From an uncultured Bacteroidota bacterium (GTDB taxonomy: Bacteria > Bacteroidota > Bacteroidia > Chitinophagales > Chitinophagaceae), in the NCBI GenBank assembly GCA_903887415.1, contig CAISPO010000044.1, positions 1 to 64,000 on the forward strand: DNA of 64,000 nucleotides. The letters run 5' to 3'. This document shows positions 42,630-61,745 of the stretch, in pieces (the first letter of the stretch is position 1; each line of letters starts with the position of its first letter). A program made the position numbers and the translations under genes. Below the pieces are notes generated by a model. The model had not been told where the DNA came from. It searched no databases and saw nothing but the letters and a program-made list of their open reading frames with translations.

Positions 42630-42925
42630 GACCAGCCTCCTTTCTTTTTAAGCGTTACATAACTTGTTGCCTCTGCTTCTATATCAGCACTTGTTTTCAC
42701 TGGCTTACCTAATAACCATGCTTGTAACTGCGCACGATCAAAAAACAGGTTCTTGCCCAGGGGCTTACTGTGCGGTATAATACCGGCACTGGTTAGCTTG
42801 TATAGGTAGGACTTTGAAAAGCCTGTAAATAAGGCTGTTTCATCCAACGTCAGTACCTCTTTTGAGGCTATCTGATTACTCAAAATCTCTGTGAGCTGTT
42901 GCTCGATACTCTTTAACGTGTCCAT
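42620..42925 (-). CDS. Excisionase-like helix-turn-helix protein
   Basis: A 101-residue protein with a MerR/Xis-type HTH (about residues 23-75): VLTLDETALFTGFSKSYLYKL and IIPHSKPLGKNLFFDRAQLQAWL. This is the standard Bacteroidota helix_turn_helix_17 protein found beside integrases, serving as an excision or regulatory factor. It overlaps the DUF3987 gene by 10 bp and lies downstream of the hypothetical gene and integrase. Confidence 0.88.
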   Translation of the reverse strand: MDTLKSIEQQLTEILSNQIASKEVLTLDETALFTGFSKSYLYKLTSAGIIPHSKPLGKNLFFDRAQLQAWLLGKPVKTSADIEAEATSYVTLKKKGGWSCR

Positions 42926-43143
42926 TTTTTAGAACGTTTTAAATTGTTGTAAAATGGACATTGGCCAATGTCTACACTCCATCGTGAAGTGATAAGCAAA
43001 AGTAGACACCAAGAGAAACTAAGGACAAAATTGGAAATGGAGCACATGCTATGAAATCCAATACAGGAAAGCATTTGAGTAATCGACCTAAATATTATTG
43101 GAAATGGAATTGGCAATAATATTGCCGTTATTGGAAATATCTT

Positions 43144-44109: not shown

Positions 44110-45180
44110 TTATAAATCAATGCCTGGTAAGTTATTCACTGCGTTTCGTTTTAACTCTTCGGCTATGTGGGCATACCTTTGGGTGTATTTCAATGTGCTG
44201 TGTCCCAAAAGCTTTGCTACTATCGTTACATCAGTCTTATAATAGATCAGATTTGTAGCGAATGAATGACGCGCACAGTGCCAGGTAATATGCTTTTGGA
44301 GTTTCGCTTTACCTACCCAGAATTTTAGCGATTTCAAGGCACCTGCATTAGTTGGCAGGGTAAATACTGGGTCCTGCGGTTTCCCGGCCTCAGGCAGCAT
44401 CGAAAGGGCTGTGGGGTTTAAGCTAACAACTGTCTCTGTATCTGTTTTGGCTCTCACTTTTGTTAGTATCTGGTTTCTCAGGTTTATATGTTTCCATTTC
44501 AACTCCTTTACATCAATCCAACTAAGCCCTGTAAAACAACAAAATAAAAAGGCATTTTTTATCTCTGGATTGGTAATAGGTGTTTTTGCAAGTATCTTGA
44601 TTTCATCTATAGTAAGCACGTCTTTCACAATACTGTCTTCTCTTTTAATACTCACATCTGCAGCAGGGTTGCTTAGTATCACTTTTTCCCTTACTGCCTG
44701 TTTTATCATTTTCTTGAACCGCTTGAAATAGCTGCTGGCACCTTCACCGGCAGATATTTCGCTAAGATATTCAGCATACCCGTGTATTATATTCTCTGTA
44801 AGTTGTTTCATGGTCAGGCTCCTGATGCCCTCTTTCTTCATATAGTCCTTGAACTTATTACAGGCTCCCTCCATGTTCCTCTTGTCCCTCTTTGTGTACT
44901 TGCTTATGTAGTGTTCAAAATACTCGATAAAGTCAACATTACTTTTGAACGAGGCTAATACGTCATATCCCTGGCTTACCAGCTCCTGCGCTCTCTTAAT
45001 AGCAATGTTCTCGGCAAGTTCCAGTGTCTCTTTGTTATGTTTCCGGTCAACTGCATTGGCAGGTTTGTATAATTTGCAGTCATTGAGGTATTCTTTGTGT
45101 CTCTTTTTGTTGTGGTAAACATCAAGATAAAGTGATATACTGCCATCACTGTTCGGTTTCTTTCTAAGTGTAACGCTCAT
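44110..45180 (-). CDS. Tyrosine integrase, IntDOT-like (Ser at the Arg I position)
   Basis: A 356-residue site-specific recombinase: N-terminal arm-type DNA-binding domain (about 1-85, SISLYLDVYHNKKRHKEYL), SAM-like core-binding domain (about 95-185) and catalytic domain (about 190-356). The catalytic HxxR is HCARHSFAT, the second His lies in LLGHST and the nucleophile Tyr in QRYAHI. The first catalytic arginine is replaced by serine (CCFTGLSWIDV), as in the CTnDOT integrase, so the enzyme may still be active. It is the first gene of the integrase-hypothetical-HTH-DUF3987 series. Confidence 0.92.
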   Translation of the reverse strand: MSVTLRKKPNSDGSISLYLDVYHNKKRHKEYLNDCKLYKPANAVDRKHNKETLELAENIAIKRAQELVSQGYDVLASFKSNVDFIEYFEHYISKYTKRDKRNMEGACNKFKDYMKKEGIRSLTMKQLTENIIHGYAEYLSEISAGEGASSYFKRFKKMIKQAVREKVILSNPAADVSIKREDSIVKDVLTIDEIKILAKTPITNPEIKNAFLFCCFTGLSWIDVKELKWKHINLRNQILTKVRAKTDTETVVSLNPTALSMLPEAGKPQDPVFTLPTNAGALKSLKFWVGKAKLQKHITWHCARHSFATNLIYYKTDVTIVAKLLGHSTLKYTQRYAHIAEELKRNAVNNLPGIDL

Positions 45181-55465: not shown

Positions 55466-55557
55466 GCTTTTCGCGCTGTCGGATGGTGAGAAAGATTTGA
55501 CAACTTTTAGAACGAAGTCAAAAAATCGAAACAGAAGTAATCCCACCTAAATACTCC

Positions 55558-55587: not shown

Positions 55588-55756
55588 TTTAGTCTTAAAT
55601 AGACCCATTTAGGTCTGTTTATGTGTTTTTTGTTACTCCCTTGTTACCCGGCAATCTTCCAAAGGTTCACGAACATTCAGGAACCAAAGGTAAGCCTTTA
55701 TGTCGTTCTAATTTTAGTGCGATTAAGGGGATTGTCAAACATCAAAACAAAAATCA

Positions 55757-56905
55757 ATGGGAGTTTATTTAAGAGAAAAGAAGCTGGAGGCAGGGCAAGT
55801 ATCGTTTTATCTTGACATCTACCACAACAAAAAACGCTGGTACGAGTTTCTCGAAATCCGTATCAGCAAGAGCCGTCCATCGCAGCAGGATAAAGAAAAA
55901 AAGCGGCTGGCACAGGAGATAAGAGCCAAACGGGAAAATGAGTTAATAGTTCAGGACAATGGCCTCGTGGATAAAGTAAAGCGCAAAGCCGATTTTGTAC
56001 AATGGTTTGAGCAATATATGAAAGACAGAAACCTTAACTACAGCCACAACCGTTCTTCTTTGCTATATCTGCAACGGTATCTTAATGGGAAAGCTTTACC
56101 GTTTAACTCATTAACGCCCGAATGGATAAGAGAATTTACAAAATACCTGCTTACCAAAGTGAGTAATAATACATCGGGGGATTACCTCAGAAATATATCT
56201 ACAGCCCTTGAAGATGCGGTAAGACAGGAAATTATCTTAGTAAACCCTTTTCGCAAAATCCCACGTCACGAACGGTTAAGACACAAGCAGATATTCAGGA
56301 ACGCTTTTACGCTTGCTGATCTGCAACTATTGTTAGATACACCCTGCAAAATGGAGCCGCAATTCAAACAAGCCTACCTGTTTTCCTGTTTTACCGGGCT
56401 GAGATGGAGTGATGTAAATCCCCTGCGCTGGTCGGAAATAATCAGGAAAACAATAGACGGTAAAGAGGAATGGTTTATGTATTTCGAGCAGGAAAAGACG
56501 GAAGATATTGAGTATTTGCCAATATCAGAACAGGCGATTGCCATATTACAAGACCGGGAAAGGGAACAACTTGAAAATAACGAAAGTAGCCAGTATGTCT
56601 TTCCTCTTGCAAAGGATGACCCGGAGACCCGCAAATTAAGCAAGCTGATAAATTACTACCTGAAAAAGTGGGCAAAGGCGGCAGGGCTTGACCCGAAAAA
56701 AATGCACTTTCATAGCTCACGGCATACCTTCGCTACCAATGTGCTTGAAAACTGCCCTGACGGTGATTTGTGGACAGTATCCAAACTGCTTGGACACAAG
56801 AGCATACAGTCCACGCAGATTTACACCCATGTGAGGGACAACAAAAAGAAAGCAGCGGTAAAGGCATTGCCAATGTTGAAAGCAGCAAGCCCTGAGGCCG
56901 CCTGA
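55757..56905 (+). CDS. Tyrosine integrase of the second element
   Basis: A 382-residue site-specific recombinase: arm-binding domain (1-85, QVSFYLDIYHNKKRWYEFLEI), SAM-like domain (about 95-190) and catalytic domain. The catalytic residues are complete: Arg in SCFTGLRWSDV, HxxR in HSSRHTFAT, His in LLGHKS and Tyr in TQIYTHV. This contrasts with the serine-bearing integrase at 44110-45180. A hairpin terminator follows at 56931. It begins the second element; the far end lies beyond the window. Confidence 0.94.
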   Translation: MGVYLREKKLEAGQVSFYLDIYHNKKRWYEFLEIRISKSRPSQQDKEKKRLAQEIRAKRENELIVQDNGLVDKVKRKADFVQWFEQYMKDRNLNYSHNRSSLLYLQRYLNGKALPFNSLTPEWIREFTKYLLTKVSNNTSGDYLRNISTALEDAVRQEIILVNPFRKIPRHERLRHKQIFRNAFTLADLQLLLDTPCKMEPQFKQAYLFSCFTGLRWSDVNPLRWSEIIRKTIDGKEEWFMYFEQEKTEDIEYLPISEQAIAILQDREREQLENNESSQYVFPLAKDDPETRKLSKLINYYLKKWAKAAGLDPKKMHFHSSRHTFATNVLENCPDGDLWTVSKLLGHKSIQSTQIYTHVRDNKKKAAVKALPMLKAASPEAA

Positions 56906-56930: not shown

Positions 56931-56962
56931 AAAGCGGTGAGCGAAAGTTCACCGCTTTTTTT
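56931..56962 (+). terminator. Hairpin after the integrase (module copy 1)
   Basis: AAAGCGGTGA (56931-56940) pairs with TCACCGCTTT (56949-56958), then a T-run. The arms are identical to those at 58707-58733. Confidence 0.75.
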
Positions 56963-56975
56963 AAAGCAAAAACAG

Positions 56976-57001
56976 ACGTTACAGTCGTCAAATAGCCGTC
57001 A
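56976..57001 (+). repeat. Triple CGTCA-type repeat, cluster 1
   Basis: ACGTTA, TCGTCA and CCGTCA start at 56976, 56985 and 56996, spaced 9 and 11 bp, just after the hairpin. The cluster precedes the 57099 gene by about 100 bp. Confidence 0.5.
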
Positions 57002-57098
57002 GAACAGCAGCAAATAAGAAAGAACTGAATATACAAGACGGAACACAACAACTCAGGACACGCCTGATAAAGCCAAAAACAAAGCATATTTTTGGGGC

Positions 57099-57986
57099 AT
57101 GGGAGAGAATAATTACAGCATAAATCTTAGAGACCTTTCGATATATGAAAGTCTCCTTTTTCCCGATTCATTTAAGGAGTATAGTGAGATGGCTGAATTT
57201 CTGCTTCGGAAAAAGAGTATGTTCATATTGGAAGATAATCTTATTGAGTTATATAGGGAAGAGCCGGAAGTAAAAGATCTTATGGAACTGGGTAATATTC
57301 CAATAGGCGCGATAACAGCGGCTTTTCCCAACAGGTTTGTACGGGAAGCCATACACCCCAAAACAGGTGGCGAAGAAGATGAAGGCGTATGGGGATGGAT
57401 GGATTTATGGAGCGATTATATTATTACCCAACACGATGAATTGTACGATCTTTTCTTTACCTACAAACTCCGTCAAACCGACCTGATGGAACTGGATAAT
57501 ATCCTGATTTTTTTTCTTGAAAACAATAGCGGCGATAATAAAACACAGTTTATCCGGTTCCTGAAATTAACCCTGCGGAAACACAGCAAAAAACTGCTGC
57601 AACCGGAACAAATTGATACAATCAACGAATGGATTACAGAGCAGGAAAAAGAACCTGCTTTATCGGGAACTATAGAACCAAAAATCAAAGGCAGGATAAA
57701 ACGGGAACGGGACGATAAAGTAACCCTGCTCAACCAGGAGCAAACAGCCCTTCTGATATATTGCCTTCGTAAAACTAAAGTGATTCTAATAGACGAGTTT
57801 CTGAATAACAAAGAAGCCGGAGTTGCATTTTCAATACTTACAGGCTATAGTGCCGACACCATCAGGCAGAACCTAAGCAAAACAGAACTGCATAAAACAG
57901 CAACCGCTAAAAATGTTGAGATGGTTGAAAAGGCACTCAAAGAAGTTCTGAAGTACATAGAAAAGCAGGTCAAACCAGAAGAATAG
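57099..57986 (+). CDS. Element hypothetical protein
   Basis: A 295-residue charged, helical protein. The C-terminal 80 residues (LNQEQTALLIYCLRKTKVI, FSILTGYSADTIRQNLSKTEL) form a domain often found in Bacteroidota element proteins near integrases, somewhat like RteC-type C-terminal regions. The resemblance is not strong enough to name a family. The gene sits between integrase and HTH genes, as the 43144 gene does in the other element, but the two sequences do not obviously match. Confidence 0.7.
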   Translation: MGENNYSINLRDLSIYESLLFPDSFKEYSEMAEFLLRKKSMFILEDNLIELYREEPEVKDLMELGNIPIGAITAAFPNRFVREAIHPKTGGEEDEGVWGWMDLWSDYIITQHDELYDLFFTYKLRQTDLMELDNILIFFLENNSGDNKTQFIRFLKLTLRKHSKKLLQPEQIDTINEWITEQEKEPALSGTIEPKIKGRIKRERDDKVTLLNQEQTALLIYCLRKTKVILIDEFLNNKEAGVAFSILTGYSADTIRQNLSKTELHKTATAKNVEMVEKALKEVLKYIEKQVKPEE

Positions 57987-58076
57987 AAGTCTCCTACCCT
58001 TCACGAACCTTCAAGTATCGAACAGAACCTAAAAAACGGTAACATCTTTGCTCCCGGAAACTAAAATCCGTGAGCA

Positions 58077-58412
58077 ATGAGTGTACAATTTTTAACGAAT
58101 ATTAATGAACAGGAATTCAGGGAATTCCTAAAGGATGCGCTAAAAGAAATTTTGGAAGGTAAGCTGGGCGCATTAAAAGAACAGCAACCCGAAATCCTTG
58201 ATGTAGAGCAAGCCGCCCGGCTGCTTAAAATGAAAATCACCACGCTGTACGAAAAAACATCCCGCAAGCTGATACCACATTTCAAAAAAGGAAACAAGCT
58301 CTATTTCCATCTTACCGAATTACAGCAGTGGATTAAAAAGGGGAAAGTAAAAACCTGCGAGGAAATAGCATGTGAGGCTATAACCTTTACGCTAAATAAA
58401 AGAGCCGCCTGA
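58077..58412 (+). CDS. Excisionase-like helix-turn-helix protein
   Basis: A 111-residue protein with an N-terminal helix and an Xis/MerR-type HTH (about residues 42-90): ILDVEQAARLLKMKITTLYEK and LIPHFKKGNKLYFHLTELQQW. It belongs to the helix_turn_helix_17 proteins beside Bacteroidota integrases that help excision or regulate the element. The start MSVQFLTNINEQEFREFLK is typical. Next comes a small acidic protein gene 44 bp away. Confidence 0.88.
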   Translation: MSVQFLTNINEQEFREFLKDALKEILEGKLGALKEQQPEILDVEQAARLLKMKITTLYEKTSRKLIPHFKKGNKLYFHLTELQQWIKKGKVKTCEEIACEAITFTLNKRAA

Positions 58413-58456
58413 ACAGCAATCTAACAAAAACAAGTTTACAATTAAAACCAGATAAA

Positions 58457-58684
58457 ATGAGAAAAGCAGAGTTTGCAGTACCATCCGAAGTGATGGCTGA
58501 ATTTGCCAATGAAATGGCAGAACGTGAATTGGACAACAAGGTTGTCGGTACGAGTGAGGATGATGAAATCCTTGTAGAAGTGACCTACGAGAAAGAAGAA
58601 ACGAAAAGTGTGGATGAGCTTGAAGCAATCCTGGACAATCTGCGTGAGCAGATTGAGGAAGAAGACGAAGAGGACGAGAACTAA
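58457..58684 (+). CDS. Small acidic element protein
   Basis: A 75-residue, strongly acidic protein (MRKAEFAVPSEVMAEFANEM, ending EEEDEEDEN) with a probable amphipathic helix in the second half. There is no known family. It lies between the HTH and ATPase genes on the same strand and ends just before a hairpin terminator. It could be a DNA mimic or partner of a neighbour, which is speculation. Confidence 0.6.
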   Translation: MRKAEFAVPSEVMAEFANEMAERELDNKVVGTSEDDEILVEVTYEKEETKSVDELEAILDNLREQIEEEDEEDEN

Positions 58685-58706
58685 GTAAATCAGGTACAGC
58701 AGCAAA

Positions 58707-58736
58707 AAAGCGGTGATAAAATTTCACCGCTTTTTT
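58707..58736 (+). terminator. Hairpin after the small acidic gene (module copy 2)
   Basis: AAAGCGGTGA (58707-58716) pairs with TCACCGCTTT (58724-58733) and is followed by TTTTTT. The stem is identical to the one at 56931-56958. Confidence 0.75.
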
Positions 58737-58752
58737 AAAGAGCAGAAAAGTG

Positions 58753-58777
58753 ACGTCAGAGACGTCATTAAACGTCA
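58753..58777 (+). repeat. Triple ACGTCA repeat, cluster 2
   Basis: ACGTCA occurs at 58753, 58762 and 58772 (spacing 9 and 10 bp), right after the hairpin and 23 bp before the ATPase ATG. Confidence 0.6.
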
Positions 58778-58799
58778 AGGGCAGTTTAAAAGAACGGAT

Positions 58800-60242
58800 A
58801 TGGAAGCAAGGAAATGTAAATATTGCAGTGGGGCAATCCCACCTGAAAAAAGAGCGGACACCAAATTTTGCAGCAACTCCTGCAAGGCAAATTATTGGGA
58901 AGAAAACAAGGACAAAAAACAAGTTCCTGAAGGGAAGGTCATACCTGAACGGGTATCGCTCAAAGTCCCCGAAAAGCCATTGGACGGGCTTCGTGGGGTT
59001 ATTGAAAATAAGCCCCAATCAGACGTCATAGCCGTCAAAGAGCCGTCTATCTGTATTGAAAACGAACAAATAACGCCAGTTGCAATAAAAAGAGAAACAC
59101 AGGCATACATGAATGCTATGGCAAAAAAGGGAAAGGCGGAATCAGAGTATCTGCGTACCCAAAACCTTTATGGTAGGTGTAAAAATTATTTGCAGGGATG
59201 GTTAAGTGAAAAGGACAAACTGAAATATACGCAACCCTTAAACCGTGTTGAGGCAATGAATGTTGATGCAATGGCTATACAGGCTAACTGTTCGGAAGAA
59301 GTTTGGGAATCTGACAATCGAAGCGAACGGCAAAAAGAAATGGAGAAAAAAATGGCTGTACTCAATGATTGTAAATACAAACTGGAGCAACGGCTGCCTT
59401 TTGCTAAGGAAAGATACGAAGCAGCCGAACTAAGTCTATCCTCTATTCCGCAGTATGAAACAGTGAAACAAAATTCAGGAATCTCAACCTTAAACTTTCT
59501 TAGAGAAACCGGACAGATAAAATTACAGCAGGAAGAACAGCAGCCGGAACAGGCAGTAGAAAAACAAGAGGATGAAAGAATAGGTGAAAACTATACGGCT
59601 ATTCAGACAAACAGCAAGCTGATAAGCAGCCGTGAACTTCTGGAGATGAATTACAAGTGTCTGAACTTTCAGGGAAGATGGATGGAATTTTTCGGGTTGC
59701 CTGCTGTTGTTTTTAATCTTGCCGTTCATGGCAAGCCGGGTGAAGGCAAATCCACTTTCTGCATACAGTTTGCAGATTACCTTGCCAAGAATTTTGGTCA
59801 GGTGGTTTACATCAGCGGGGAGGAAGGTTTTTCAAAAACGCTAAGAGATAAGGTTGTCAACAACAAAATTGATAACCCTTCCCTGTTCTTTGCCGATATA
59901 AACTCCTATGAAGAAATCAAAAATGAAATCGGAAATAATCAGTTCCATTTTATTTTCATAGACAGTTTAGACACCCTTCGTATTGATGCAACCCGCCTGC
60001 GTGAGCTTAGGGAGTATTATTCGCAATCGGCTTTCATAACTATTTCGCAGTCCACAAAGGATGGAAAAATGCGCGGTTCTCAGGAAATCACCCACGATAC
60101 CGATATTGCCGTAAAGGTTGAAGATGGTGTGGCTACTACTACGAAAAACAGGTTTCATCCAAGAGGTACAGAATTCCAGGTTTTTCCAACTGCCGGAAAA
60201 CCTGCTAATAAGATGATAGATGAACCGAGAAACTTGATATGA
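58800..60242 (+). CDS. Zinc-finger RecA-like ATPase (RepA/KaiC-like) of the element
   Basis: From ATG 58800 the 480-residue product has an N-terminal Cys4 zinc finger (CKYCSGAIPPEKRADTKFC and SNSC), a helical, Gln/Glu-rich middle and a RecA-fold ATPase domain (about 285-470). The latter has Walker A HGKPGEGKST, VVYISGEEGFSKTL and Walker B FIFIDSLDTL. It probably serves replication or mobilisation of the element, like RepA/RadA-type ATPases. The open frame upstream to 58713 starts inside a terminator hairpin and is rejected. A third CGTCA cluster lies inside the coding region (59023-59048). Confidence 0.8.
   Translation: MEARKCKYCSGAIPPEKRADTKFCSNSCKANYWEENKDKKQVPEGKVIPERVSLKVPEKPLDGLRGVIENKPQSDVIAVKEPSICIENEQITPVAIKRETQAYMNAMAKKGKAESEYLRTQNLYGRCKNYLQGWLSEKDKLKYTQPLNRVEAMNVDAMAIQANCSEEVWESDNRSERQKEMEKKMAVLNDCKYKLEQRLPFAKERYEAAELSLSSIPQYETVKQNSGISTLNFLRETGQIKLQQEEQQPEQAVEKQEDERIGENYTAIQTNSKLISSRELLEMNYKCLNFQGRWMEFFGLPAVVFNLAVHGKPGEGKSTFCIQFADYLAKNFGQVVYISGEEGFSKTLRDKVVNNKIDNPSLFFADINSYEEIKNEIGNNQFHFIFIDSLDTLRIDATRLRELREYYSQSAFITISQSTKDGKMRGSQEITHDTDIAVKVEDGVATTTKNRFHPRGTEFQVFPTAGKPANKMIDEPRNLI
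59023..59048 (+). repeat. Triple CGTCA-type repeat, cluster 3 (in CDS)
   Basis: ACGTCA, CCGTCA and CCGTCT start at 59023, 59032 and 59043 (spacing 9 and 11 bp), the same layout as clusters 1 and 2 but inside the ATPase gene and without a hairpin. Confidence 0.45.
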
Positions 60243-60385: not shown

Positions 60386-61483
60386 ATGAAGAAGATAGAC
60401 AAAGTAGATACCGAAAAGGCTTTTAATGACTTGCCTTTTTTGCCACCAGCAAAGGAAAAGATTGAGACAATAAAGGTATTGCGCCAATTGGTTAAATCGT
60501 CTGTAGCACTGGCGGAATTGAAGGGACTTGCAAATACACTCCCCAACCCCAACATACTATTAAATGCTATCATTCTGAAAGAGGCAAGGGCAAGTTCTGA
60601 AATTGAAAACGTGATAACAACGCAGGATAAATTGTATCAGGCATTATCGGCGAAAAACACTCAAATAGATTCTGCAACAAAGGAAGTGCTGCGCTATCGT
60701 GAGGCTATGCTATTTGGGTTTCATCTCATTCAGAAGAGAGGCTTTTTAAATACCAATGCCATAATTGAAACTCAAAAAGTATTGGAAGAAAACAATGCCG
60801 GAATCCGTAAACTACCCGGCACTGCATTAAGAAATGCTGCAACAGGAAAGGTGATATATACTCCGCCGGATGATTATGATGCCATACTCCGGCTAATGAA
60901 AAATCTGGAAGAATACTTAAACGAAGACGATGATATTTCACCATTGATTAAACTGGCGGTTCAGCACTACCAGTTCGAGAGCATTCATCCTTTTTATGAT
61001 GGCAATGGACGAACCGGGCGAATCATTAACGTGCTATACCTTATCCTTCATAATCTGCTTGAAAGCCCTATTCTTTATTTGAGCGCCTACATCATTGATA
61101 ACAAAGCTGACTATTACCGGCTATTACAGGAAATACGCCTGAAAGATAATTGGGAAGAATGGATATTATACATACTAAAAGGAGTTGAAGTTACCGCAAA
61201 AGAGACCATTAGTCAGGTTCAGGAAATAAACAAGCTCTTTATAAAAACACAAGAAAAAGTAAAGAGCGAAGCCGAGAAATCATATAATAAGGAATTATTA
61301 GAGCTGTTATTTGAACACCCTTACAGCAAAATAGATTACCTGATTGAAAGGCTTAAAATTTCAAGGATCACTGCATCCAAATATCTTAAAGAGCTTGAAA
61401 AATTAGGCATACTGCAATCCAAGAAAGTTTGGAAAGAGACATTATATATCAATACAGAGCTTTTTGATCTTCTTAAAAAGTGA
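60386..61483 (+). CDS. Fic-family AMPylase-type protein with C-terminal winged helix
   Basis: A 365-residue Fic protein: N-terminal Fic_N region with the inhibitory helix motif SSEIEN (residues 70-75, class II type), the Fic core with complete active site HPFYDGNGRTGR (201-212), and a C-terminal winged helix (about 300-362: YSKIDYLIERLKISRITASKYLKEL). Fic enzymes transfer AMP or other nucleotides to protein hydroxyls. The self-contained inhibitory motif means no separate antitoxin is needed. The palindromic site at its promoter suggests autoregulation through the winged helix. It is cargo of the second element. Confidence 0.93.
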   Translation: MKKIDKVDTEKAFNDLPFLPPAKEKIETIKVLRQLVKSSVALAELKGLANTLPNPNILLNAIILKEARASSEIENVITTQDKLYQALSAKNTQIDSATKEVLRYREAMLFGFHLIQKRGFLNTNAIIETQKVLEENNAGIRKLPGTALRNAATGKVIYTPPDDYDAILRLMKNLEEYLNEDDDISPLIKLAVQHYQFESIHPFYDGNGRTGRIINVLYLILHNLLESPILYLSAYIIDNKADYYRLLQEIRLKDNWEEWILYILKGVEVTAKETISQVQEINKLFIKTQEKVKSEAEKSYNKELLELLFEHPYSKIDYLIERLKISRITASKYLKELEKLGILQSKKVWKETLYINTELFDLLKK

Positions 61484-61591
61484 ACTTGTTGATTGCGTCT
61501 TTATTTTTAATGCAAGCTGCGGCCAGTTGGGAAAACTTGCCAACCTTTGATGATATTTTCGGGGAAGCGAAAAGGAATTTCAAATTATAGA

Positions 61592-61745
61592 CAAGCAGTC
61601 AATCAAAAGAACGAGACGGTAAAGAGGCAAGGCTCGTAGGAAATTCCACGATACCTATATGGCTATGAAGGTTGAATATGCCGTAGCTATGACTACAAAA
61701 AACAGGTATCACCCAAGAGATACGGAATTCCGGGGTTTCCATGAT
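61592..61745 (+). pseudogene. Decayed duplicate of the element ATPase 3' end
   Basis: The plus strand encodes, with frame damage, KQSIK then HDTYMAMKVEYAVAMTTKNR and HPRDTEFRGF. This matches the ATPase at about 60040-60190 (SQSTKDGK, HDTDIAVKVEDGVATTTKNR, HPRGTEFQVF). It has no start and lies just after fic, so it is a partial, mutated copy. Confidence 0.8.

What the first reader, a model, noticed from the sequence alone, without database searches (positions are those of the whole stretch)
56931..59048. Repeated regulatory module: identical hairpin plus three CGTCA repeats
The stem AAAGCGGTGA/TCACCGCTTT occurs at 56931 and 58707. In each case it is followed about 20 bp later by three N-CGTCA units spaced 9-11 bp, then a gene start. 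A third triple lies at 59023. One-turn spacing suggests cooperative binding by an element protein. A terminator next to such sites could be a nut-like antitermination or operator module.
Basis: partly seen in the sequence, partly recalled or inferred. Interest (0 to 1): 0.65.

Follow-up and report, generated by a model that had tools for sequence, protein, structure and literature searches.

The report
Repeated protein-binding arrays in integrative element
[quoted passage not shown] they look like cooperative docking sites for the element's own excision/regulator protein, while the hairpins next to two of them are ordinary transcription terminators.

Summary
The repeats are real and look selected. 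They belong to a ~12-kb Bacteroidetes integrative element (window 55499 to contig position ~67556; the right end lies outside the window). In three genomes of this genus every CGTCA triple with one-turn spacing (5/5, 2/2, 2/2 matches) falls in this element family, and arrays recur at the same places in an orthologue with ~77% DNA identity. A fourth array, four TGACGTCA-like units exactly 10 bp apart, lies ~310 bp inside the right end. It is kept in two derivatives, carrying little besides the integrase and foreign cargo, that lost the gene B, HTH, 75-aa and ATPase genes. So the arrays go with integrase plus ends, not with the hairpins. The hairpins are intrinsic terminators whose stem is not constant between elements. 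A nut-like role is unlikely: the arrays lie downstream of the terminators, two arrays have no terminator, and one is inside a coding sequence. Best reading: cooperative binding sites of a recombination directionality factor (Apl/Cox/RdfS-like) that both helps excision and regulates promoters; the element's HTH_17 excisionase-family protein (58077-58412) is the best candidate. Which protein binds is inferred. Rivals: integrase accessory sites, or replication iterons. Interest is moderate.

The parts
55499..55519 (+). left end of the element: GACAACT-TTTAGAA-CGAAGTC (attL-like core); the right partner GACTTCG-TTTAGAA-AGTTGTT lies at contig ~67543-67563, outside the window
   Evidence: direct reading of both ends plus the same layout in G299 and G373
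55611..55652 (+). AGGTCTGTTTATG followed by TTGTTACTCC/TTGTTACCCG, two repeats 11 bp apart; the same block recurs near the right end (contig ~67447-67490); probable integrase arm-type sites
   Evidence: function inferred
55666..55688 (+). second shared operator-like motif TTCACGAACATTCAGGAACCAAA upstream of the integrase gene (recurs at 58000-58022 upstream of the HTH gene)
55757..56905 (+). tyrosine integrase (Arm-DNA-bind_5, Phage_int_SAM_5, Phage_integrase)
   Evidence: Pfam
56931..56958 (+). intrinsic terminator 1, after the integrase gene
56977..57001 (+). array 1: CGTTA, CGTCA, CGTCA at 9 and 11 bp (orthologues L003 and L037 have four exact CGTCA)
57099..57986 (+). gene B, 295 aa, no family; promoter-like TATTTTTG at 57087-57094
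   Evidence: promoter by eye
58000..58022 (+). copy of the operator-like motif, TTCACGAACCTTCAAGTATCGAA, upstream of the HTH gene
58077..58412 (+). HTH_17 / excisionase-family DNA-binding protein, 111 aa; best candidate to bind the arrays
   Evidence: Pfam HTH_17 5.9e-12; TIGR01764 'excise' 1.8e-6, just under its cut-off; phrog_66 'excisionase and transcriptional regulator' 1.5e-6
58457..58684 (+). 75-aa acidic protein, unknown
58707..58733 (+). intrinsic terminator 2, after the 75-aa gene
58751..58777 (+). array 2: TGACGTCA / AGACGTCA / AAACGTCA, 9 and 10 bp apart; conserved in L003 while parts of the neighbouring intergenic DNA diverged
58800..60242 (+). treble-clef zinc finger + coiled coil + RecA-like (RadA/KaiC-type) ATPase, 480 aa; start ATG at 58800, not the GTG at 58713
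59022..59049 (+). array 3 inside the ATPase coding sequence: GACGTCATAGCCGTCAAAGAGCCGTC; sequence type of array 1
60386..61483 (+). cargo: SoFic-like Fic protein (replaced by another gene in L003)
61569..61739 (+). decayed second copy of the 3' end of the ATPase gene

Best explanation
The CGTCA arrays are clustered binding sites for an element-encoded DNA-binding protein that covers them cooperatively, one protomer per helical turn, and bends the DNA. That protein is most likely the HTH_17 excisionase-family protein at 58077-58412, acting as a recombination directionality factor with a second job as transcription regulator, in the manner of phage 186 Apl, P2 Cox or ICE RdfS. At the right-end array (contig 67205-67242, ~310 bp from the crossover) it would help excision and/or control the outward promoter (TATATTTG, contig ~67345) that faces the integrase gene once the element is circular. 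At arrays 1-3 it would regulate gene B and the ATPase. The hairpins are plain terminators that insulate the integrase and 75-aa genes from what follows. Shown: arrays, their spacing, conservation, restriction to the element family in this genus, positions relative to the ends and genes, and the family of the HTH protein. Inferred: which protein binds, cooperativity and bending, the excision role and the direction of regulation.
For: Arrays recur at the same places in the orthologous element L003 (four, three and three units), in the truncated second copy in the same genome (L037, four units) and, at array 1 and the right end, in G299 and G351. Array 2 stays intact where nearby intergenic blocks are ~40-75% identical; array 3 sits in the longest run of identical codons of the first half of the ATPase gene (9 codons against a 64% mean) and matches array 1 over 27 bp. 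Home genome: 5 of 5 triple matches lie in the elements. Spacing is 9-11 bp, exactly 10 bp at the right end. Published: RDF sites are direct repeats one helical turn apart, bound cooperatively, at both att and promoters (PMC7498355); RdfS binds about one molecule per 10 bp at attP and promoters (PMC11963761). The HTH protein matches the excisionase model TIGR01764 and phrog_66 'excisionase and transcriptional regulator'.
Against: G299 and G351 keep array 1 and the right-end array without this HTH gene; G351 has no homologue at E<=1e-5 and G299 only 31-36% ones, so there the factor must act from another element, or the sites serve Int, or the loss is recent. The right-end array is ~310 bp from the crossover, further than in lambda or P2 (from memory). 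Its units are palindromic (TGACGTCA), which RDF sites need not be. The element also has another operator-like motif, upstream of int and of the HTH gene, that could equally be the HTH protein's site. Gene B and the zinc-finger ATPase are not excluded as binders. No binding data exist.
Confidence: 0.5

Rival explanations
1. The arrays are accessory (arm-type or enhancer-like) sites of the integrase itself. Int binds them through its arm domain, so they persist wherever an int gene and the ends persist.
For: Int is the only protein shared by all copies that keep arrays, including derivatives without the HTH gene. Int has an arm-DNA-binding domain. Direct repeats one turn apart also suit arm sites.
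Against: Better arm-site candidates exist: TTGTTACC repeats in the same layout ~85-140 bp from both crossovers. Arrays 1-3 lie 1.4-3.5 kb from the left end. The G373 mini-element lost both arrays, although its int gene is also broken.
Confidence: 0.17
2. The arrays are iterons of a replication origin of the excised circle, bound by an initiator (gene B or the zinc-finger RecA-like ATPase), as in satellite P4 or phage lambda, where iterons lie at separate places or inside the initiator gene.
For: Array 2 is directly upstream of the ATPase gene and array 3 inside it. The ATPase has a treble-clef-like zinc finger and a RadA/DnaB-like ATPase domain. Repeats at several distant places resemble P4 ori/crr (from memory; no relevant paper found).
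Against: Derivatives keep arrays but lost the ATPase and gene B. No primase or relaxase was recognised. An AT-rich unwinding element was not looked for systematically.
Confidence: 0.18
3. The arrays are operators for a regulator other than the HTH_17 protein (for example gene B or the ATPase zinc finger) with no role in recombination.
For: Array 2 lies immediately upstream of the ATPase gene; array 1 and the right-end array lie ~86 and ~103 bp upstream of promoter-like TAnnTTTG boxes.
Against: Gene B and ATPase are missing in derivatives that keep the arrays; the site geometry is the RDF type.
Confidence: 0.1
4. Hairpin plus array is an RNA-level nut-like antitermination or attenuation module.
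For: The terminator-array block occurs twice and the two blocks are 81% identical over 63 bp.
Against: The arrays follow the terminators instead of preceding them; arrays 3 and R have no terminator; array R is palindromic DNA near the element's end; stems change between elements; no Rfam match.
Confidence: 0.03

Closest known systems
Phage 186 Apl / P2 Cox operators (recombination directionality factors)
   Same: multiple short direct repeats 10-11 bp apart, at the attachment region and at promoters; a small excisionase-family HTH protein encoded by the element
   Different: here some units lie in a coding sequence, right-end units are palindromic TGACGTCA, the array is ~310 bp from the crossover, and the binding protein is not proven
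ICEMlSym R7A RdfS
   Same: wHTH factor binding several regions of an integrative element, including attP and promoters, about 10 bp per protomer
   Different: RdfS has no consensus motif; here the motif is sharp. No conjugation genes were recognised here
CTnDOT/NBU1-type Bacteroidetes elements
   Same: Bacteroidetes tyrosine integrase with arm-binding domain and an HTH_17-type small gene downstream; crossover spacers can differ between the two ends (comparison partly from memory)
   Different: no relaxase or conjugation genes recognised; cargo-carrying, with deletion derivatives reduced to integrase, ends and cargo
Satellite P4 / SaPI iterons
   Same: short repeats at several separate places, some next to or inside a replication gene (from memory)
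   Different: kept in derivatives without the putative replication gene

Membership tests
RDF (Apl/Cox/Xis-type) operator array | direct repeats one helical turn apart | tested here: met
   9-11 bp spacing in all arrays
RDF (Apl/Cox/Xis-type) operator array | sites both near the attachment site and near promoters | tested here: inconclusive
   right-end array ~310 bp from the crossover (a long distance); arrays 1 and 2 upstream of genes
RDF (Apl/Cox/Xis-type) operator array | cognate excisionase-family protein encoded in the same element | tested here: inconclusive
   met in the window element and L003, not met in the derivatives G299 and G351
RDF (Apl/Cox/Xis-type) operator array | cooperative binding, DNA bending and excision stimulation | not testable with these tools
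   needs protein
nut-like antitermination module | recognition site lies upstream of the terminators it overrides | tested here: not met
   arrays begin ~20 bp downstream of each terminator
nut-like antitermination module | conserved RNA stem-loop with constant sequence | tested here: not met
   stem sequence changes between elements and the hairpin is a terminator
Integrase arm-type sites | flank the crossover on both sides at short range | tested here: not met
   CGTCA arrays lie ~310 bp and 1.4-3.5 kb away; TTGTTACC repeats fit better
Replication iterons | initiator gene present with the repeats | tested here: inconclusive
   met in the window element and L003 if gene B or the ATPase is the initiator; both absent in the G299 and G351 elements that keep arrays; trans supply not excluded
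Intrinsic terminator (hairpins) | GC-rich stem followed by a T-run, after a gene end | tested here: met

The most novel reading that the evidence does not exclude
The arrays are the shared cis-acting identity tag of a helper/satellite network: one protein made by complete elements recognises CGTCA arrays at both edges of the cargo region and mobilises (excises or replicates) stripped-down derivatives in trans, so that cargo genes are exchanged between array-marked ends.
Probability: 0.12. Interest if true: 0.65.

Novelty: new variant of a known kind. Interest (0 to 1): 0.42.

Why it matters
It gives cis-acting sites and a likely factor for a family of cargo-carrying Bacteroidetes integrative elements for which I found no description in the papers searched. 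The same sites mark complete elements and stripped derivatives, so they are a usable signature for finding such elements, and they make excision control and trans-mobilisation directly testable.

Tried and rejected
No relatives of gene B, ATPase, HTH, the 75-aa protein or integrase were found in IMG/VR viral contigs, nor array or right-end DNA there; phages (gene B only) gave nothing and plasmids gave only distant ATPase/integrase hits. Gene B occurs in 2 of 394 family genomes (home plus a relic) and in no genome other than the home genome in a 395-genome phylum sample. The 75-aa protein led to unrelated loci. ATPases ~36% identical in other elements have no CGTCA array and other N-termini. 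Structure models of gene B and the ATPase are low confidence (mean pLDDT 48 and 52), so no fold search was made. An empty-site check by flanking synteny was uninformative because gene order is not kept downstream of the right-flank M16 gene. Considered and rejected: host regulon (arrays confined to elements), chance, MetJ-type 8-bp tandem boxes (the period here is 10 bp).
Full report
Observation. Both hairpins are exactly where stated (56931-56958, 58707-58733), and no other hairpin with this 10-bp stem and a 3-12 bp loop exists in the 4.73-Mb genome. The repeats are CGTTA/CGTCA/CGTCA (56977, 56986, 56997), CGTCA x3 (58754, 58763, 58773) and CGTCA/CGTCA/CGTCT (59024, 59033, 59044). So 7 of the 9 units are exact, and the third triple lies inside the ATPase coding sequence without a hairpin. 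The GTG-started ORF that would cover hairpin 2 and array 2 is not the gene: homology with L003 places the start at ATG 58800.

More than chance. The element holds seven same-strand CGTCA pairs 9-11 bp apart, the rest of the 79 kb of contig examined none, and shuffled element DNA 0.02 on average. Over 394 genomes of the family only 15 contain any CGTCA triple with 9-11 bp steps. In the home genome all five matches, and in G299 and G351 both matches, lie in this element family; hits in other genomes have no homologue of the element's proteins in the DNA fetched around them.

What the element is. The window copy begins at ~55499 and ends outside the window at contig position ~67556 (L099 = contig 60000-79000). 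Evidence: (a) left-end and right-end sequences are homologous to those of compact copies in G299 (3.3 kb, L097) and G373 (1.55 kb, L118), where both ends lie close together; (b) both ends carry a tyrosine-recombinase-like core, GACAACT-TTTAGAA-CGAAGTC on the left and GACTTCG-TTTAGAA-AGTTGTT on the right, with a shared direct block AGGTCTGTTTATG...TTGTTAC repeats inside; (c) G+C is 30-45% throughout 55.5-67.5 kb, against mostly 43-51% in the flanks. That the left and right ends in this contig belong to one insertion is likely but not proven, because flanking synteny was uninformative. Genes: integrase, gene B (unknown), HTH_17/excisionase-family protein, 75-aa protein, zinc-finger RecA-like ATPase, then variable cargo (a SoFic-like Fic protein here, a DUF4357 protein in L003). 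No relaxase or conjugation gene was recognised.

Where the arrays are. Array 1 follows the integrase terminator; array 2 precedes the ATPase ATG; array 3 is in the ATPase gene. Array R lies at contig 67205-67242, ~310 bp inside the right end: TGACGTCA-tc-TGACGTTT-gt-TGACGTCA-ga-TGACGTCT, exactly 10 bp per unit. The orthologous element L003 (75-77% DNA identity) has the same three internal arrays, with four exact units in array 1; its contig stops before the right end. The second, truncated copy in the home genome (L037) has four exact units in array 1. G299 has arrays 1 and R but neither gene B, HTH, 75-aa nor ATPase. G351 has a decayed array 1 (CGTTA, CGTCA, CGTAA), a stub of the ATPase 3' end, foreign cargo and a perfect array R. 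G373 has lost both arrays and the 3' end of int. L038 is a relic interrupted after the first CGTCA. Arrays therefore go with integrase plus ends and flank the cargo region; they do not go with the hairpins.

Selection on arrays. Between the window and L003, array 2 is identical apart from one inserted base, while neighbouring intergenic blocks are 40-75% identical. Array 3 lies in a run of nine identical codons, against a gene mean of 64%, and matches array 1 over 27 bp.

Hairpins. All eight hairpins tested fold with z of -5.2 to -9.5. Stem sequence varies (AAAGCGGTGA, GGCGGTGG, AAGTGGTGAG, GGCGGTGAGC) with pairing kept. They are ordinary intrinsic terminators.

Mechanism. One-turn direct repeats, at the attachment region and at promoters, bound cooperatively by a small excisionase-family HTH protein, are the published hallmark of recombination directionality factors (PMC7498355; PMC11963761). 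The element encodes such a protein (TIGR01764 'excise', just under its cut-off; phrog_66 'excisionase and transcriptional regulator'). I therefore propose that this protein binds the arrays, promotes excision at array R and regulates gene B, the ATPase and the right-end promoter. The distances from array 1 and array R to the next promoter-like TAnnTTTG box are 86 and ~103 bp, which would suit upstream activation (inference). The weak point is that G299 and G351 keep arrays without this gene. Either they are mobilised in trans, or the loss is recent (G299's int is 99% identical to the window's; G351's left end is 96.5% identical to L003's), or Int itself uses the arrays.

Rejected. Nut-like antitermination fails on order (site after terminator), on arrays without terminators and on changing stems. 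Chance and host-regulon explanations fail on the genome-wide distribution. Int arm sites are better filled by the TTGTTACC repeats. Iterons remain possible.

Verdict. Real protein-binding-type arrays under apparent selection; most likely operators of a dual-role excisionase/regulator in a cargo-carrying Bacteroidetes integrative element; the binding protein is not shown.

Noticed in passing
window 55666-55688 and 58000-58022; L003 1865-1887 and 4196-4218: A second shared operator-like motif (TTCAYGAACGTTCAGGAACC) upstream of the integrase gene and of the HTH gene; in L003 both copies start 36 bp upstream of a GTAATTTT promoter-like box.
   Followed up: partly
window 61569-61739; L098 4001-4048: Fragments of the ATPase 3' end recur at cargo junctions (after Fic in the window, soon after array 1 in G351). 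The ATPase 3' end has the longest run of identical codons (14, codons 445-461), so cargo may be swapped by recombination there.
   Followed up: partly
window 55499-55519; L097 6704-6741 and 9946-9983; L118: The element appears to insert into palindromic targets (GATTTGACAACT-N7-AGTTGTCAAATC in G299 and G373; around CCCCTTTAGGGG in the L003/L037/L098 subfamily), with 7-bp crossover spacers that differ between the two ends in G299 and G373.
   Followed up: partly
L037 9446-9952 (G000:C42): Second copy of the element in the same genome: gene B is cut after 71 residues and runs in frame into an unrelated gene that looks Smr/MutS2-like by eye; the right end is missing.
   Followed up: partly
L118 (G373:C2): 1.55-kb mini-element: left end, integrase truncated at residue ~339, fused directly to the right end; arrays lost.
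   Followed up: yes
L038 860-960 and 4036-4515 (G089:C52): Relic: integrase 3' end, terminator and one CGTCA, then ~3 kb with a 917-aa gene, then a decayed gene B; the break falls at array 1.
   Followed up: no
window 42644-42949 and 44110-45180: Another integrase gene with a nearby HTH_17 relic (37% identical to the element's HTH, one stop): probably a second, decayed integrative element in the window.
   Followed up: no
L099 6272-6553 and 6597-6929 (contig ~66.3-66.9 kb): An HU-family protein gene and an ArsR-family regulator gene lie inside the predicted element next to the right-end array; the ArsR relatives in four genus genomes sit elsewhere without the HU gene alongside, so possibly captured host genes.
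   Followed up: partly
right ends L097, L098, L099, L118: A conserved outward promoter-like TATATTTGC followed by TTGAGCTTCTTTGAAATATTGCCG; after circularisation it would read across the attachment site towards the integrase gene.
   Followed up: no
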